Of a DNA stretch of 64,000 nucleotides, positions 51,710 to 58,674 are shown piece by piece. The position numbers were made by a program, and so were the translations under genes. Under the pieces are notes generated by a model that was not told where the DNA came from, did not search any database, and saw only the letters and a program-made list of their open reading frames with translations. This DNA comes from Aliiroseovarius sediminilitoris (GTDB lineage: Bacteria; Pseudomonadota; Alphaproteobacteria; Rhodobacterales; Rhodobacteraceae), in the NCBI RefSeq assembly GCF_900109955.1, contig NZ_FOJB01000001.1:868001-932000 (forward strand). Reading direction: 5' to 3'. Numbering within the stretch: the stretch's first letter is position 1; every line of letters starts with the position of its first letter.

Positions 51710-52810
51710 TCACTGAAACACCGACAGATCAACAAAGGACCCAATCGCGCTGGCCAGGATCGGCGAGGCGATGGCAAGGATGGATTTGAATGCCTCCATA
51801 CTTGCAATACGCCTTATGTCGAAGCCTTCAAGCGTGCTGCCCAGCTTGGTTTCTCCGACCGCTTCGCTTGCCTGTTTGAACCGCTCGATCCGCACCTTCA
51901 GGATCAGGCTGACCGGCATATAGAATGACAGAATCAGCACCGTATAGGTCACGCCGCGAAACATGGACAAAGAACTGACAACACTGTCATGTGCGTTGCG
52001 CAGAATCGGGTCTGCGATCAAGGCACCGGGCCATTTCATCCAGGACAGCACAAGCACCATCCCGGTCGTCAGCAAGACACCGGCACAATAGAGATACCGC
52101 TGGGTGCTTTCCTGCGCGTTTTGCAGTGCCGTGGCCTCGGAAATCAGTGCGTTCTTGTTGCTGCGATCAATGCCAACAGGGTCGGCCAGTGACAGAACCA
52201 TTCCCGCTATGATCGCCGCTGCCGCCAGTGAGGTCAGGATGTTGACGCGATCCAGCAGGTATTTCATCGCAAAGTATGCGCCCATATTCTCGCAAGGCCC
52301 TGTTAGTGCGCCGCCGGGGTCGCAGCCGGGCAGATTGCCGATGCCAAGCGCTGTGCGAAACAGGTTTTCGCCCAGCAAGGCTTGCGATTCAAAACTCGCG
52401 GGCATCCAGTCCGGCTCAAAAGTTGAAAAGCTGAGCGTCACCATGATGACCCCGACAATGCCGACCAGCGTATAGCAGATCGACTTTTTCGTATGGCGGG
52501 CATAAAGCTCGAATGAAAACATGGCGATAAGGGTGATGGTCACGGCCACGAATAAAAACAGGGCGGCAAGAAACTTGTAACGTCCGTCCAGCTCGATCAG
52601 CGGCGCCATCGGCGCAAGTTCGATCCCCTGCACCTGTAACGACGTATCACCGAACGTGCCCAGCAAATATTCTGAAGCAGTCAGCACCGCGACCGGCAAG
52701 AGAAGGATCAACAGATAGCGCGGTGCGATCTGTAGCTTTCCCGCAGTGACCGGTCGTGGCAACGGCACGGCGTCACTGTCGAGTGGTGGAGGCGCGTTTT
52801 CCTGTGTCAT
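51710..52810 (-). CDS. Uncharacterised multi-spanning membrane protein of the protease operon
   Basis: A 366-residue protein of no recognised family. After a Pro-rich cytoplasmic N-terminus (about 1-28) there are six or so hydrophobic segments (about 30-50, 82-102, 113-130, 190-208, 240-260, 285-310) and a last one near the C-terminus. A loop holds Cys in LPGCDPGGALTGPCENMG, which could form a disulfide. The start overlaps the caspase-gene stop by four bases (ATGA), so it is translationally coupled and probably works with that protein at the membrane. Confidence 0.75.
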   Translation of the reverse strand: MTQENAPPPLDSDAVPLPRPVTAGKLQIAPRYLLILLLPVAVLTASEYLLGTFGDTSLQVQGIELAPMAPLIELDGRYKFLAALFLFVAVTITLIAMFSFELYARHTKKSICYTLVGIVGVIMVTLSFSTFEPDWMPASFESQALLGENLFRTALGIGNLPGCDPGGALTGPCENMGAYFAMKYLLDRVNILTSLAAAAIIAGMVLSLADPVGIDRSNKNALISEATALQNAQESTQRYLYCAGVLLTTGMVLVLSWMKWPGALIADPILRNAHDSVVSSLSMFRGVTYTVLILSFYMPVSLILKVRIERFKQASEAVGETKLGSTLEGFDIRRIASMEAFKSILAIASPILASAIGSFVDLSVFQ

Positions 52811-55800
52811 CCGATGTCGATATCCGCAATCAGGGTTTTGCGCGTGTCCGCCAGCTTATCGCGAATGATCTCGCGTATATCGGCGTAGATCGTCGGGCTA
52901 AGGACGACTTTCTGCGCGGACAGCCAGTAGTCAAGTTCGTTCTTGCCCCATGACACAAACAGGATGTTCTGCTTTTTGTCTTTGAAATTGAAGTTGAACG
53001 CGCCCAAAGCCATCGAGATTACGTCACCCGATGCCTCGGCGCTTCCGATCTGGAAATTGCCACCGGTCGAAGTGGAGGTTTCGAAATCAAACAGCTTGAT
53101 TTTGCCGTCATCCGCTGCCAGCCCGCGCAGCGCCTCCATCGCGCTTTCGACGATCTTGAACTGGTTGCCGGTCGCGACCTGGGCAAGTGTGGCCAGGACG
53201 ACCTTATCGAAGCTGCCATTGCCTTTCATCTTCTGGCTGGCCTCGAAAGGCGCGGCCTCGCGGGTCCATCCCATCAGGCTGAGCATATCCATATAGGTTG
53301 TGTGCCACAGCTCACGTTCCTTCACCGGGTCGGCCTTTGCGTCCGCCGCCCGCTGGGCAAACAGCGTTGACAAAAGCACGTCCTCTTTCTGGCTGGGGGT
53401 CAGGTTCTCGACGAACGAGATCACGCTGGATGCGCTGACCGCTGCTTGTAGCGATTGCTGGTGTGCTGCATTTTCAGACGTTGGGTCGAAATCGTCGTTC
53501 GACCGGCTGACCGGGTCCGCGAAGGCCGAACTGCGGGATTTCGCACCCGGTGCCGATCTGGGCTTGGCCAACATAGTTGCAATCAGAATTGCGATCCGTT
53601 CCGCAAGATCGCGCGGCTCGCGTTTTTTCAGGGGCGACGAGCCGGACAGCTTCATGTCTCGGAATGCCGGTGGCCATGTGGCGTTGACGCCGCGCGTGTC
53701 GATATGGGTGAAGCTGCTATAGCGGCCGATCCCGCCGGTGAAGAACCCCTCTTTGTCACGCAGCCAGCGCAGGGCTTTTGCCGCCTCGGGGGCAGACATT
53801 CCAGAGACCTTGAAATCCAACGCGCAGAACTTCATGTGCTGGCTTTGTTTGGCCCCACCAATACAAGCGTTATACGCCGGGCCACGATACGCGTTGGTGA
53901 TGGCGATGGGTTTACCGATCCGGTCGCGGAAATGGTCCAGCGCCTGCGCGGTCTTGGCGATATTGGTCCACAAGCCGCGCGGTGGATAGGTGTTCTTGCC
54001 CTGACATTTCCCGCCGGGGGTCGAGTGCCCTCCACCCAGGATCAGGAACTCATCCGTACCGAAATTTTTCAGCCCAAGTGACCGGATAAATCCGTCGAAG
54101 TCCGCATAGTCTGGCCACTCAAGCGCCGCCGTGGCGCTGCGGAAGCCCGCCCCACGTGTCTTGGCTGACAGGATCGCATCAAGCTCGGCATCAGGCAGAA
54201 GGTCATTTTCGTCTCCTTCATCCTCGGTCATCGGATCGACCGATGCAGAGAATGATTTGGCCGCCACTGTGCCCGTTCCGGATGAAATACCGGCAGGTTG
54301 CAAGGTGAAGGGCCGATCAAGAACGAAATTCGGCTGTTTCAGCAACCGTTCAAACAGTTGCGGAGTTTGGCTGTCGCTGCCGATCTCGGCGTCGATTGCG
54401 GCACGGAAGGCGCGGTAGTCGCCGGTGAAGCGTCCGCCGTTCCAGACGTTCAGAAGGGCGCCGGTGAAGGCCCCGTTTTGCGGCCCGTCCATCGCATATT
54501 GCGTATCCTTGCACGCCCCAAGGTTCAGGACAGACGCCTGAATGGGGCTGCTGAGCGGCGCGGTCATGACGCTTTCTTTCATCGCGCTGTAAGACTTCGA
54601 CGCAGTGCGATAGGCGGCTTCGTTGGCCCGCCAGACTCGATCTTCAACATAAAGCGGCATGGCCCGGATGCGCGGGTCTTGCGGGATGACGCGCCCAAAC
54701 AACTCGGCCGGGGCGGTGGGACCAAACCGCGCCATCGACCCGGAATGGCAAGTGTCCGGCATGATCAGCACGCGAACCCCATCGCGGAACAGGGTCCAGA
54801 GCATATAAAGCTCGTCATCCGCGATCTGGAAATCATACAGGCATAAGGTTTCGTCCATCCGCTGGCTGTCGTCGTCATGGTCTTCGTCCTGATTGAAATC
54901 GGGCACCCGCCCGCCATGGCTGGACACGGTAAAAAGGAACATGTCACCCGGGGAAAGGTCTTTTGCAGCGCGCTTTATTTCGTCCACCACGTTCTGGCGG
55001 GTGGCGTCACTGGTCAACACAAGCTGCGGTTTGAACCCCTCGCTTTCAGCGATACCCTGCATCGCAAGAGCGTCGGCTTCGCAGGCGGCCAGTTGACCAT
55101 CCCAGCCGTCATAATGCGTCGGATCCACGGAGTTGATACCGACATGCAAGGACATGCCTTTTGCCGGGCCTCCAGCGATGACCGGGGGCGCTTGCAAGGC
55201 GCGTGACAACTCGACGGCCGAGCCAAACGGGCCGCTCACAACAACAGGCGGTCCGCTGCGGGCGTTGGCGATGCGATTGATCTCGAGCTGGAATTTGCGC
55301 GCGACATCGCCATAGCCTTCGCCTGTCGGGTGCAGCCCGTCGAACCAACGATTATTGCCCACCACACCCCGGCAATCAATATAGGTGACATTGGGCATCG
55401 ACCGGGACAGGCGGCGCAGGCGTCGGTTGAACTGGTCCATCATCTCGGCGGCGATGGCCATTTGCAGCGCGCGGTCGCGAATGCCCCGCGATTCCATCGG
55501 TTGGCCAAGCCACTTATCCTTGTTGGGCACGGGATAGTCATAGCCGTGGCACAGGATGTTGACATGGGGGAACCTTTGCTGCACCTGCCGGAACATCCGC
55601 CCATAATGCCCGAGCGCGTCATCGAGCAGCGCCTGGAAGGATGGCAGCAGGTAATCAGCAGGGGCGAGTTCGGGGTCGAAAGCCTCTAGATGGGAGGCCA
55701 GAGCGCCGCCAGCGACCAGATCGTTGCCGCCTCCTGACAGAAGCAATATCTCGGCGCCTGTTTCTTCCAGCGCGCGGATATATTCCTGTTTGTCCGCCAT

Positions 55801-56193
55801 ACGTTTCAGCAGATCGCCTGCGGCGCCCAGCGAATAGATCGCATAGCTGGCCATCAAGTGGTCGATCGTGTCGCGCAGGCGGATGGGATACTGAAACCAA
55901 CTGTCCCCTTCGGACACGATGATCGGGCCGTCATAGCCCTGTGCCAGTTTCTTCTGAAACGCGCTTTTGCGGTTCATCCGTGCAAACCAGTTGGCCGAGT
56001 TCATCAACGCCGCCGTGCGTTGGGCGGCGTTGGCGCCGCGAGGAATCTGAACGGTCGCAGGGTTCAGCTTGAACTTGGGGGAGAATGGACCTGATCGTTC
56101 CTCATCAAGTATGAAATACTCTGAGAGTTCGGATTCATCGGCGTTCAGATCCGACATTTTCGACATCAGTTGTTCAACAGTGATCTTGGTCAA
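52807..56193 (-). CDS. SGNH hydrolase - caspase - M15 peptidase fusion protein
   Basis: A 1128-residue protein with no signal peptide. Residues of about 90-310 are an SGNH hydrolase (EGDSWF with Ser98, GGGND with Asn157, DGLHP with Asp285/His288). Residues of about 345-635 are a caspase-like C14 peptidase (SSHGG with His426; PDTCHSGS with Cys482). Residues of about 700-850 resemble M15 D,D-carboxypeptidases (QSQHMKFCALDFKV and SSFTHIDTRG; likely zinc ligands His786, Asp793, His830). Residues of about 850-1128 match nothing I know. All catalytic residues look intact. It is the middle gene of a three-gene operon, 21 bases after the papain-like gene. Confidence 0.85.
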   Translation of the reverse strand: MTKITVEQLMSKMSDLNADESELSEYFILDEERSGPFSPKFKLNPATVQIPRGANAAQRTAALMNSANWFARMNRKSAFQKKLAQGYDGPIIVSEGDSWFQYPIRLRDTIDHLMASYAIYSLGAAGDLLKRMADKQEYIRALEETGAEILLLSGGGNDLVAGGALASHLEAFDPELAPADYLLPSFQALLDDALGHYGRMFRQVQQRFPHVNILCHGYDYPVPNKDKWLGQPMESRGIRDRALQMAIAAEMMDQFNRRLRRLSRSMPNVTYIDCRGVVGNNRWFDGLHPTGEGYGDVARKFQLEINRIANARSGPPVVVSGPFGSAVELSRALQAPPVIAGGPAKGMSLHVGINSVDPTHYDGWDGQLAACEADALAMQGIAESEGFKPQLVLTSDATRQNVVDEIKRAAKDLSPGDMFLFTVSSHGGRVPDFNQDEDHDDDSQRMDETLCLYDFQIADDELYMLWTLFRDGVRVLIMPDTCHSGSMARFGPTAPAELFGRVIPQDPRIRAMPLYVEDRVWRANEAAYRTASKSYSAMKESVMTAPLSSPIQASVLNLGACKDTQYAMDGPQNGAFTGALLNVWNGGRFTGDYRAFRAAIDAEIGSDSQTPQLFERLLKQPNFVLDRPFTLQPAGISSGTGTVAAKSFSASVDPMTEDEGDENDLLPDAELDAILSAKTRGAGFRSATAALEWPDYADFDGFIRSLGLKNFGTDEFLILGGGHSTPGGKCQGKNTYPPRGLWTNIAKTAQALDHFRDRIGKPIAITNAYRGPAYNACIGGAKQSQHMKFCALDFKVSGMSAPEAAKALRWLRDKEGFFTGGIGRYSSFTHIDTRGVNATWPPAFRDMKLSGSSPLKKREPRDLAERIAILIATMLAKPRSAPGAKSRSSAFADPVSRSNDDFDPTSENAAHQQSLQAAVSASSVISFVENLTPSQKEDVLLSTLFAQRAADAKADPVKERELWHTTYMDMLSLMGWTREAAPFEASQKMKGNGSFDKVVLATLAQVATGNQFKIVESAMEALRGLAADDGKIKLFDFETSTSTGGNFQIGSAEASGDVISMALGAFNFNFKDKKQNILFVSWGKNELDYWLSAQKVVLSPTIYADIREIIRDKLADTRKTLIADIDIG

Positions 56194-56214
56194 TGGTCTT
56201 CTCCTTGATGGCGT

Positions 56215-58431
56215 TCAGTGTCCCTTTTCCTGAAATCCTCTTATGCATTCGAAAATGCTGTTGGTGATGGTGGGGTCGTCGTTCAGGGCAGACTGCGGGA
56301 TGCGGTCCAGATTGTGTTTCTGCGCGGCAATACAGTTCAGCCGGAACACCGCATTTTGCACCGGGATTGTGGGATCATCCACGACACCCGACATGCCAAG
56401 AAACGGTCGAGGGCGCAGAAGATAGGGGGCCGAGGTGTCGTCGGCGTCTTGTGGCAAGGGGTATCGATCTTCGAATGCGCGCGAGACGAGGTGGAGGATG
56501 GATTTGCCATAGGCACCGAACTTCACGCGCTCCTCAAGTTCGGGCGTTGGGACGTAAATCCGCGCACGCGGAGGTGTCGTGTATTCCAGGTATTCCTGCA
56601 CCACCGGCTTGCGCGATGACGACTTGCGTTTCTTTTTGCCCGCAACAGGACCGTTCATTACGTTGATCAGCGGGATCAGGCGTTTCCTGGCGCGTGGCAT
56701 CCCAATAGCCGGATGGACCAGATGCAGCGTGTCAAACCGGTCCATCCCCCGCGGTTTCAAGGAAGCCGGATCGAACCAGCGTGTCTTGTGCGCCAGCAGC
56801 GACAGCATTTCGTGCACCACCAGAGCACCGGCCCCTTCGGCGACGATGTGAAGTTCACAACCCGTTTCTTTTCTTAACTCCAACAGGTCGAACAACAGAT
56901 CGCCGACAAAGCCGGTCTTGATCTTGTCAAGTTCGTCACTTTCGAAATCTTCATATGGCAGTTCTTCGGTGCCCCGCAGCGCGCGTCGGGCACTCAGTTC
57001 GATATCCCGCCAGAAAGCGCGACCCACGCCACGCACGCGGTTTTCGATCAGTTCGTCAAGATGGGCGGCATTTTCCCCAGCTTGTTCTTCGCAACTGTCA
57101 AACAGGCTTTGCAGCACCTCAAGTGATTTTTCGACGAAGCCGTTGCACCAGAAAATCGTATAGGGATACAGGCCCAGATCCTTGATCAGGGTCTTACGCC
57201 CGACCGCGTCGGCAAAGGCGGGCTTTATTCCCTCAAGACTGCCGGGGATCCAGATCAGGACGCCGCGATACTGGTTGTCCTTATTGGCGGGATCGGCCTT
57301 GGGGTCCAGCCGTTCTGAAAGGTATTTGCGGGTTCGTGTCCAGCCATCCTTGAAAGACGGATAAGACCCGGTGGCCACGTGATATCCATCATCCAGGTTC
57401 ATGTAATGGCCGACAAGTTCAAAACTGGGGGTGGAGCCGGACTGGATGGGGCCGGCGTCGCCCTTGGTGCCTTTTTCGCCAACAGACGCGCCGAAGGCAG
57501 AGGGGGCGAACACGCCCAGTCGCAGGACCCAGCTGTCCACCACGTTCTGCGCCCAATCGGTGTAAGACCACAAGCCCACCCCTGCTTGCCCGTTATATCC
57601 GCCCCATTTCGGTCCCCAAGAGTTCAGGATGTGAAATCCCATTTCATCATAGCCGATGACAACGAAAGCATGCGTGCCGGTCTTTCCAAGCGCGGGCGGC
57701 CAGGTGATCAGACCTCCTTTGTCGGGCAAAGCCTCAAGCCAGCCGTCATGAATATTCGCCGTGGTCAGGATCGCCTCGGCATCGTTCAGCGCCGCGTGAA
57801 AATGGTTCAGGATCGAGGCCAGGCGGAAATAGGCGCCAAGCCCGATCTCGCGCGCTTTCTTGGCCTGACCGACCGTGGTGAACTTACGCGCTTTGTCTGG
57901 CCCGTCCGCCAAATAGCATTCGCTTTGCCAGCGCCCCTCATCGGTGGTCGGTTCGCCAAAGGGCCAATCGCGACAGACGCCATGATGATAGAAGCCCTTG
58001 ATCGCAGATCGTAATGTCAGGATCCCTTCTTCTGCCAGCACTTCACCGTTTTCAAGCTCGGGATAGCGGTCATGGAAGGACGCCATGCGATACAGCATGT
58101 CTGCACTGACGATATCTTCCTGCACCTTTGACAGATCGGGTTCGGGATGATCGCTAGTGCTGGGCGTACGGCGCAGGGTTTGCAGAAGTCGTTGGATGTC
58201 GATCAGATTGGCCAGCGCAAAGCCGACACACCGACCGCTGCTGCCTTGATTGCGCGCACCAAAGACTGGCACCTGCAACCCGGTGGCGGGATCAGGGGTC
58301 AAGAGTTTCGGGTTCAGGGAAACCGTGTCACGCAGCACCGCCAGATTGGGGACATAATCCTGATCGCGCAGGTCCACCCAATCGGCGCGCACGCCGGTAT
58401 CCTTGATCAAGGATCGCGCAAAGCTGGCCAT
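56215..58431 (-). CDS. Papain-like (C1) peptidase fused to a degenerate alpha/beta-hydrolase domain
   Basis: A 738-residue protein without a signal peptide. Residues of about 15-310 form a C1 peptidase: RNQGSSGRCVGFA (Cys68), TGTHAFVVIGYD (His254) and HILNSWGPKWGG (Asn270), a full triad. Residues of about 385-735 resemble an alpha/beta-hydrolase, but the nucleophile elbow reads VAEGAGA, with Gly533 where Ser is expected, so this part is probably a binding domain. It is the first gene of the operon with the caspase fusion and the membrane protein. The upstream 58432-58550 stretch is notably AT-rich. Confidence 0.85.
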   Translation of the reverse strand: MASFARSLIKDTGVRADWVDLRDQDYVPNLAVLRDTVSLNPKLLTPDPATGLQVPVFGARNQGSSGRCVGFALANLIDIQRLLQTLRRTPSTSDHPEPDLSKVQEDIVSADMLYRMASFHDRYPELENGEVLAEEGILTLRSAIKGFYHHGVCRDWPFGEPTTDEGRWQSECYLADGPDKARKFTTVGQAKKAREIGLGAYFRLASILNHFHAALNDAEAILTTANIHDGWLEALPDKGGLITWPPALGKTGTHAFVVIGYDEMGFHILNSWGPKWGGYNGQAGVGLWSYTDWAQNVVDSWVLRLGVFAPSAFGASVGEKGTKGDAGPIQSGSTPSFELVGHYMNLDDGYHVATGSYPSFKDGWTRTRKYLSERLDPKADPANKDNQYRGVLIWIPGSLEGIKPAFADAVGRKTLIKDLGLYPYTIFWCNGFVEKSLEVLQSLFDSCEEQAGENAAHLDELIENRVRGVGRAFWRDIELSARRALRGTEELPYEDFESDELDKIKTGFVGDLLFDLLELRKETGCELHIVAEGAGALVVHEMLSLLAHKTRWFDPASLKPRGMDRFDTLHLVHPAIGMPRARKRLIPLINVMNGPVAGKKKRKSSSRKPVVQEYLEYTTPPRARIYVPTPELEERVKFGAYGKSILHLVSRAFEDRYPLPQDADDTSAPYLLRPRPFLGMSGVVDDPTIPVQNAVFRLNCIAAQKHNLDRIPQSALNDDPTITNSIFECIRGFQEKGH

Positions 58432-58674
58432 CGAAATAACCGTCCCTTACAAAACAATAGGTATTCAAAATCAACTAATCTGAGAAATAATAGTATTTTA
58501 CTCTATCAGAAAACTGTCCCGAATACAAAAACACTCTGTTTCTGAGTCAGAGTCCACCCGGTTGAACCTTGGTGAAGACCATCCGGTCGATGCCGGGAGC
58601 CGCATTTTTGAATGTTATCCTGGCCGAGATGGCGATAGGTTTTCCTTCGATTGAAACCGCTTGCCGGGGCACAT

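What the first reader, a model, noticed from the sequence alone, without database searches (positions are those of the whole stretch)
51710..58431. Three-gene operon of papain-like protease, SGNH-caspase-M15 fusion and membrane protein
Three tightly packed minus-strand genes combine a C1 peptidase with complete Cys/His/Asn triad, a 1128-residue chain with intact SGNH, caspase and M15 catalytic residues, and a multi-span membrane protein coupled by an ATGA overlap. I know of no described system with this set. Caspase-like proteins in bacteria take part in programmed death and phage defence, often with a second protease or membrane effector. M15 peptidases cut peptidoglycan, so an alternative is an envelope-remodelling machine. 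No nucleotide sensor or STAND-type NTPase is present, which argues against the known caspase defence types.
Basis: partly seen in the sequence, partly recalled or inferred. Interest (0 to 1): 0.9.

Follow-up and report, generated by a model that had tools for sequence, protein, structure and literature searches.

The report
Caspase-gated endolysin with a papain partner
A bacterium related to marine roseobacters carries two adjacent genes, one for a papain-type protease and one for a single chain that joins an esterase, a caspase and a phage-type wall-cutting enzyme, most likely a protease-controlled self-destruct device from a modular family that has hardly been described.

Summary
Three minus-strand genes encode a C1 peptidase with intact Gln/Cys/His/Asn, an SGNH-metacaspase-M15 chain with intact catalytic residues, and a seven-span membrane protein joined by an ATGA overlap. 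The conserved unit is two genes: C1-ABH adjoins the chain in 21 of 21 related loci, the membrane protein in 12 of 21 (eleven labelled Aliiroseovarius, one unassigned bin). In the wider family the SGNH core is fused to caspase, trypsin, zincin-like, amidase, M15, NucA or EEP parts, and C1-ABH is fused to trypsin or stands beside trypsin-NucA or a KAP NTPase: proteases and lethal hydrolases are exchanged around a recurrent, though not obligatory, SGNH/C1-ABH pair. I read it as a protease-gated lysis (programmed death or defence) module in which the metacaspase holds back an endolysin-type M15 domain. No activity, trigger or defence was shown. Precedents exist (a GDSL-caspase-amidase chain noted in 2012; trypsin-NucA systems; Canu; LypABC), so I call it a new variant of a known kind.

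The parts
56215..58431 (-). gene 1: C1 papain-like peptidase (about 1-310) plus alpha/beta-hydrolase-like half (about 335-738) with the nucleophile Ser lost (AEGAGA)
52807..56193 (-). gene 2: 1128-aa chain, N-terminal region + SGNH esterase + metacaspase + M15 endolysin-type peptidase + C-terminal domain
55264..56193 (-). N-terminal region and SGNH core of gene 2 (residues 1-310), the recurrent module of the wider family
54226..55173 (-). metacaspase region of gene 2 as searched (residues 341-656; domain about 345-632); closest solved relative 3bij (GSU0716)
54133..54168 (-). basic stretch SAKTRGAGFRSA (residues 676-687) in the caspase-M15 linker, candidate cleavage site (inference)
53659..54123 (-). 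M15 peptidase domain (residues 691-845), endolysin type
52810..53556 (-). CTD (residues 880-1128), a separate gene in other loci
51710..52810 (-). gene 3: seven-span membrane protein, lineage-specific accessory
58432..58650 (.). AT-rich stretch 5' of gene 1 (42.5% GC against 58.3% for the window); a promoter here is a guess, no sigma-70-like site was found on the minus strand there

Best explanation
A self-directed, protease-gated lysis module (programmed death, probably anti-phage), working like a caspase-locked endolysin. Shown: two linked genes without signal-like segments, conserved active-site residues, co-location and co-divergence, exchange of the lethal enzyme in relatives. Inferred: an unknown trigger, perhaps at the membrane (gene 3 here, other membrane proteins elsewhere), activates C1-ABH and/or the metacaspase; the metacaspase, of basic-residue-cutting type, cuts the conserved basic stretch before M15 and frees M15-CTD; the CTD and/or gene 3 bring M15 to the periplasm in the role of a holin, where it cuts peptidoglycan cross-bridges, while the SGNH esterase attacks acyl esters of lipid or wall. 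The serine-less alpha/beta half of gene 1 would be a docking or regulatory part.
For: C1-ABH directly 5' of the SGNH-caspase-M15 chain in 21 of 21 related loci and in 7 of 7 genomes with the full chain (the window's own included) among 292 of the order. Order sample: both C1-ABH and SGNH core in 13 genomes, C1 only 5, SGNH only 10, neither 264 (Fisher 6e-13); class sample 6/5/2/372 (3e-9). In the 13 the matches lie within about 4 kb of each other (G201 across the ends of a contig taken as circular). Distances of the two proteins correlate, r 0.92 over 171 pairs of 19 rows. M15 matches phage endolysin family phrog_894, 2.6e-25. Of 10 SGNH-caspase loci without M15, 8 have a separate wall-hydrolase gene in the same gene row (CHAP, GH19-like, GH46+YkuD, PG_binding+CHAP). 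SGNH core elsewhere fused to Amidase_3-M15, trypsin, trypsin-EEP, trypsin-NucA, a zincin-like part. Metacaspase hits with the D-x-C motif; linker residues 676-687 hold 3-5 Lys/Arg in 21 of 21 rows. No hydrophobic segment in genes 1 and 2 by a crude scale. Patchy: 7 of 292.
Against: No activity, cleavage, lysis or phage protection was tested. No sensor is identified. The pair is not obligatory in the wider family: in the order sample 10 of 23 genomes with the SGNH core lack C1-ABH and 5 of 18 with C1-ABH lack the core; of 10 SGNH-caspase loci without M15, C1-ABH adjoins in 7, lies divergent 3.7 kb away in L032, and is not in the fetched stretch of L094 and L095. Defence genes adjoin only in a few plasmid loci that I looked at by eye (L095 SIR2+AAA, L025 ABC-three-component, L024 VapBC), without a control; the window copy lies among metabolic genes. 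Gene 3 is absent from 9 of 21 loci and the CTD from 3 of 21, so neither can be an essential holin for the subtype. PADLOC finds only a caspase model (8.2e-7) in gene 2 and nothing in genes 1 and 3. An acidic stretch (about 659-664) in the linker is conserved too, so the basic one need not be a cleavage site. The AlphaFold model of gene 2 is poor (pLDDT 51).
Confidence: 0.5

Rival explanations
1. An exported antibacterial or predatory enzyme cocktail (interbacterial toxin) acting on other cells' envelopes.
For: Wall hydrolases, esterase and animal-type haem peroxidase travel together; a gene annotated as Rap1a/Tai immunity protein lies in L094, about 5.5 kb from the SGNH-caspase gene; M15 has no obvious way to its substrate from inside the cell.
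Against: No signal-like segment in genes 1 and 2 by a hydropathy scale only; no immunity gene in the two-gene unit; I saw no secretion-system part in the annotated tables that I read (five further plasmid stretches had no annotation), but did not search for one; DNase and protease parts fit intracellular targets better.
Confidence: 0.2
2. A lysis module for release of gene transfer agents, as LypABC does in Caulobacter.
For: The host has a GTA marker (PF13547, 8e-153); LypABC joins proteases to GTA lysis (PMC13236601).
Against: PF13547 is in 6 of 7 genomes with the chain and in 17 of 20 chosen genomes without it, so it does not track the module; relatives lie on rhizobial plasmids; no NLR-like ATPase in the three genes.
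Confidence: 0.07
3. A housekeeping or stress-response envelope-remodelling complex.
For: M15 also resembles the MepK endopeptidase model (3.7e-6, 26.9 bits, far below the cut-off of 185); the window copy is chromosomal with ordinary GC (58.1% against 58.3%).
Against: Full chain in 7 of 292 genomes of the order; about a dozen different gene settings among the 21 loci, with three groups of 4, 6 and 2 that share flanks; nuclease or peroxidase parts in related loci.
Confidence: 0.12
4. Proteases are the executioners: C1, caspase and SGNH destroy cell proteins and lipids, and M15 is one more blow after death, with no gating role.
For: All active sites are intact; relatives carry two or three different proteases in one locus.
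Against: Conserved stretches in the caspase-M15 linker after a hypervariable part and the swap of the downstream enzyme suggest release of a payload.
Confidence: 0.11

Closest known systems
Prokaryotic metacaspase chains with a wall amidase, including the Chitinophaga pinensis GDSL-caspase-Amidase_2 protein (Asplund-Samuelsson 2012, PMC3501461; passages and section 13 read)
   Same: GDSL/SGNH, metacaspase and a peptidoglycan hydrolase in one chain; authors proposed a destructive or programmed-death role
   Different: M15 instead of Amidase_2; extra CTD; C1-ABH partner; the partner and the wider modular family are not in the parts read
NucA-trypsin conflict systems ('System 3', Kaur 2020, PMC7159879; sections 32-33 and passages read)
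   Same: Mostly alphaproteobacterial protease plus killing enzyme, papain- and lysozyme-type parts recruited; relatives of the window genes include trypsin-NucA (L054, L062)
   Different: The window operon has no NucA and no trypsin; SGNH and GDSL do not occur in that text (0 occurrences each)
Canu caspase-nuclease defence (PMC12799240; passages read)
   Same: Caspase activates a pro-enzyme to kill or arrest infected cells
   Different: MBL-fold nuclease and a caspase with Ig-like fold; here an endolysin-type peptidase fused to a metacaspase
LypABC CARD-NLR-like lysis hub (PMC13236601; abstract and passages read)
   Same: Two protease proteins in an alphaproteobacterium drive host lysis; one is trypsin-endonuclease
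   Different: Has an NLR-like ATPase; its parts are trypsins, not caspase, papain or endolysin
Phage M15 endolysins (phrog_894)
   Same: M15 domain and endolysin profile
   Different: Here behind SGNH and caspase domains in a chromosomal protein

Membership tests
Metacaspase (C14) | His-Cys dyad and Asp two residues before the Cys | tested here: met
   H426, D480, C482 in 21 of 21 rows; 3bij 4e-64 and Metacaspase-1 1e-8; the role of the Asp in basic specificity is recalled
Papain family C1 | Gln-Cys-His-Asn | tested here: met
   Q62, C68, H254, N270 in 19 of 19 rows and in 15 of 15 rows of a more diverse alignment, 3 of them shared; also in 19 of 19 proteins
SGNH/GDSL hydrolase | Ser, Gly, Asn, Asp/His blocks | tested here: met
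   S98, G126, N157, H288 invariant in 16 of 16 diverse rows, D285 not in all (Asn in L049)
M15 endolysin | His-Asp-His metal site and endolysin profile | tested here: met
   phrog_894 2.6e-25; that these residues bind the metal is recalled
Holin-endolysin cassette | holin in the same unit | tested here: inconclusive
   gene 3 has 7 spans, no PHROG hit, absent from 9 of 21 loci
EACC1-caspase system (Kaur System 4) | 5' single-span EACC1 gene; caspase at the N-terminus | tested here: not met
   caspase_w_EACC1 15.4 bits against cut-off 140; caspase is internal, the 5' gene has no span
Canu | MBL-fold pro-nuclease beside a caspase | tested here: not met
   no such Pfam hit in genes 1-3 or seven further window ORFs
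CARD-NLR / LypABC | STAND/NLR-like ATPase plus trypsin | tested here: not met
   no such Pfam hit in genes 1-3 or seven further window ORFs
NucA-trypsin System 3 | NucA and trypsin domains | tested here: not met
   absent in the window operon; present in relatives L054, L062
Any anti-phage defence system | protection against phage | not testable with these tools
   needs a plating assay

The most novel reading that the evidence does not exclude
An undescribed class of modular bacterial death systems: a recurrent pair (SGNH esterase core and papain-alpha/beta-hydrolase protein) into which caspase, trypsin or zincin-like activators and interchangeable killing enzymes (endolysins and other wall hydrolases, NucA and EEP nucleases, haem peroxidase) are plugged, by fusion or as neighbours; in the window's member a metacaspase is the safety catch of a cell-encoded endolysin, and the alpha/beta partner turns into a serine-less pseudo-enzyme where a caspase stands beside it.
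Probability: 0.4. Interest if true: 0.8.

Novelty: new variant of a known kind. Interest (0 to 1): 0.63.

Why it matters
Caspase-type proteases of bacteria are known to activate a nuclease (Canu); a caspase that locks a wall-cutting endolysin in the same chain would be a new way to carry out programmed lysis, and the swap of wall enzymes, DNases and peroxidase around one recurrent pair would give a handle for finding more such systems in marine and rhizobial bacteria.

Tried and rejected
Gene 3 as constant member: rejected (12 of 21 loci; no plasmid record at E 1e-3). Gene 3 as a relative of the 583-643-aa membrane family near other SGNH loci: no support (hhalign probability below 1%). Phage origin: no P0001 or CTD match in 50,697 phage records; for P0002 398 records match, none covering 80% of the query, and of the 20 rows listed 19 lie on or around M15 and one on the caspase; 5 and 8 distant relatives in viral contigs, not followed. 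Identity of the CTD: no Pfam, PDB or PHROG hit. Alpha/beta half by fold: Foldseek best E 0.48, not significant; the name rests on the GHSAG elbow of relatives, predicted alternating strands and helices and a sub-threshold Abhydrolase_3 hit in L079 (0.027). Empty-site proof: the two same-genus genomes without the module do not keep both flanking genes. Giant proteins beside trypsin-C1 fusions: no Pfam hit in the one tested. GTA link: no tracking.

It is lost also in 6 of 6 trypsin-C1-ABH fusions (L035, L036, L058, L059, L065, L066). I had also written that relatives of gene 2 start with ATG; 15 of 21 do.

Rows dropped: three weak matches (G263, G144, G188) of 21 genomes, 59 of 82 genomes whose matches are M15-only, caspase-only, CTD-only or short; one of 9; thirteen of 24. 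Alignments left out L013 (A6) and L011, L013, L014 (A7). Genomes are related, so Fisher values overstate independence, and the order and class samples share G000 and G003.
Full report
Observation. The three ORFs are present as described, with a 21-nt gap between genes 1 and 2 and an ATGA overlap between 2 and 3. Gene 2 matches Lipase_GDSL_2, Peptidase_C14 and Peptidase_M15_3 above the Pfam cut-offs. Gene 1 has no Pfam hit but matches a solved C1 peptidase at 4.4e-9, and its Sinorhizobium relative matches Peptidase_C1 at 5.6e-9. The catalytic residues are the same in every aligned row.

Gene 1 has a second half that reads as an alpha/beta hydrolase (ABH). In a diverse alignment of 15 rows the nucleophile elbow keeps its serine in 9 and has lost it in 6. 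By context, with the proteins added: the serine is lost in 28 of 28 C1-ABH proteins that stand in line with an SGNH-caspase gene (window; 20 of the 21 gene-2 loci, L013 not aligned; L024, L034, L064, L091-L093, L097) and in 6 of 6 that are fused to trypsin; it is kept in 14 of 14 others examined (L033, L037, L039, L049-L051, L055, L056, L062, L078, L079, L084-L086) and in L032, whose C1-ABH gene is divergent from an SGNH-caspase gene. I did not examine L081 and L087-L089. Gene 2 carries about 240 further residues (CTD). CTD relatives are separate genes just 5' of the SGNH-Amidase_3-M15 gene of Sinorhizobium fredii (L025) and of an SGNH-trypsin gene (L057), and stand in tandem beside a trypsin-like gene on a S. 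meliloti plasmid (L067). Pfam, PDB and PHROGs do not know it.

Conservation of the unit. One scan of genome contigs gave 21 loci. In 21 of 21 a gene-1 homologue stands directly 5' of the gene-2 homologue; in L013 it is cut by the contig end. Gene 3 homologues occur in 12 of 21, eleven labelled Aliiroseovarius and one an alphaproteobacterial bin; the other nine lack it within the fetched flanks at E 1e-5. M15 is in 21 of 21, the CTD in 18 of 21 (not L019-L021). Flanking genes are shared inside three groups of 4, 6 and 2 loci (the first with the window) and otherwise mostly differ. Among 292 genomes of the order the full chain is in 7, each time with gene 1 next door; C1-ABH is in 18 and the SGNH core in 23, 13 shared where 1.4 would be expected. 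In the class sample of 385 genomes the figures are 11, 8 and 6; of those six, four have the genes together or within about 4 kb, and two (G735, G905) do not. So the pair is recurrent but not obligatory: 10 of 23 and 5 of 18 genomes of the order sample have one without the other. Distances between the two proteins correlate (r 0.92), though shared descent alone would also give a correlation.

The wider family. The SGNH core occurs with caspase-M15-CTD (window type), and with caspase alone. Of 10 such caspase-only loci, 8 have a separate wall-hydrolase gene in the same gene row: CHAP in L024 and L093; GH19-like in L091 (Pfam 7.3e-7) and a 315-aa ORF 90% and 89% identical to it in L092 and L097; GH46 plus YkuD in L095 and, 87% and 82% identical, in L094; PG_binding_1 with a sub-threshold CHAP hit in L096. 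L064 has none that I recognised and L032 is undecided. C1-ABH adjoins in 7 of the 10 (L096 across the start of its circular record, seen in L034), is divergent 3.7 kb away in L032, and is not seen in L094 and L095. The core occurs further with Amidase_3-M15 beside a trypsin-EEP-SLT-like chain (L025, L026; EEP and SLT there are my reading, Pfam names only the trypsin); with trypsin and, beside it, an animal haem peroxidase gene (L049; L050 and L051 have the same layout, their middle gene not scanned); with trypsin-EEP and a DUF4386 membrane gene (L052); with trypsin-NucA (L054); with a zincin-like part (L053, Peptidase_M10 at the cut-off); and alone beside C1-ABH (L078, L079). C1-ABH is fused to trypsin (Pfam for L035 and L059; by similarity L036, L058, L065, L066) or stands beside trypsin-NucA (L062) or a KAP NTPase (L056). 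So proteases and lethal hydrolases are exchanged around a recurrent pair.

Membrane side. Gene 3 is one of several unrelated membrane partners. A 583-643-aa multi-span family lies near L015, L026, L091-L094, L096 and L097, in five of these eight (L015, L026, L093, L094, L096) with an SBP_bac_3-type gene (Pfam shown for L026, L094, L096). This hints at a sensor or export role at the membrane, without proof.

Mechanism proposed. The caspase region is closest to GSU0716 (4e-64) and then to eukaryotic metacaspases; the invariant D480-x-C482 suggests cutting after Lys or Arg (recalled from metacaspase work). The linker between caspase and M15 has a mean modal fraction of 0.58 against 0.84-0.85 for the flanking domains; inside it an acidic stretch (about 659-664) and a basic one (676-687, 3-5 Lys/Arg in 21 of 21 rows) are conserved. 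I propose cutting at the basic stretch, by the caspase itself or by the C1 partner, to free M15-CTD. This is inference; the conserved stretch could also be the beginning of the M15 fold, and the AlphaFold models are of low confidence (mean pLDDT 57 and 51).

Known work. Of PMC3501461 I read passages and section 13 (a GDSL-caspase-Amidase_2 protein of Chitinophaga pinensis; an amidase in a Geobacter sulfurreducens metacaspase operon; a Rhizobium operon with protease and protease-inhibition functions); of PMC7159879 sections 32-33 and passages; of PMC12799240 and PMC8195603 passages; of PMC13236601 abstract and passages. Eight literature searches turned up no paper in which the SGNH/C1-ABH pair is described, as far as listings and passages show; most subscription journals and preprints are not covered.

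Verdict. Real, conserved and biologically coherent; best read as a protease-gated lysis or death module; function untested. New variant of a known kind (proteolytic-cascade conflict systems), with an unexcluded case for a new class.

Noticed in passing
L015, L026, L091-L094, L096, L097: A 583-643-aa multi-span membrane family, in several loci with an SBP_bac_3-type gene, recurs near SGNH-caspase and SGNH-amidase loci; possible sensor. The L015 copy appears interrupted.
   Followed up: partly
L067:7827-9495: Tandem CTD-family genes beside a trypsin-like gene and an NYN-domain gene on a conjugative Sinorhizobium meliloti plasmid; 48 plasmid records match the CTD.
   Followed up: partly
L035, L036, L058, L059, L065, L066: Trypsin-C1-ABH fusions stand head to head with giant ORFs of at least 1645-2143 aa (cut by the fetched ends); the one scanned (L059) has no Pfam hit. 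All six have lost the alpha/beta serine.
   Followed up: partly
L056:2911-6531: KAP-family NTPase (PADLOC QatA 9e-18) directly 3' of a C1-ABH gene, so some members have a P-loop NTPase.
   Followed up: no
L024:2002-4047: A second caspase gene, fused to an FGE-sulfatase domain, about 2 kb upstream of the C1 and SGNH-caspase pair in Sinorhizobium meliloti.
   Followed up: no
L032:3695-6802: A protein annotated as YEATS-associated-helix-containing and a trypsin-like gene with one span lie between an SGNH-caspase gene and a divergent C1-ABH gene in Rhizobium leguminosarum.
   Followed up: partly
L094:14347-14673: Gene annotated Rap1a/Tai immunity protein about 5.5 kb from an SGNH-caspase gene.
   Followed up: no
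L020: A close relative of the pair (66% and 55% identity) in a bin labelled Granulosicoccus, a gammaproteobacterium (recalled): transfer between classes or misbinning.
   Followed up: no
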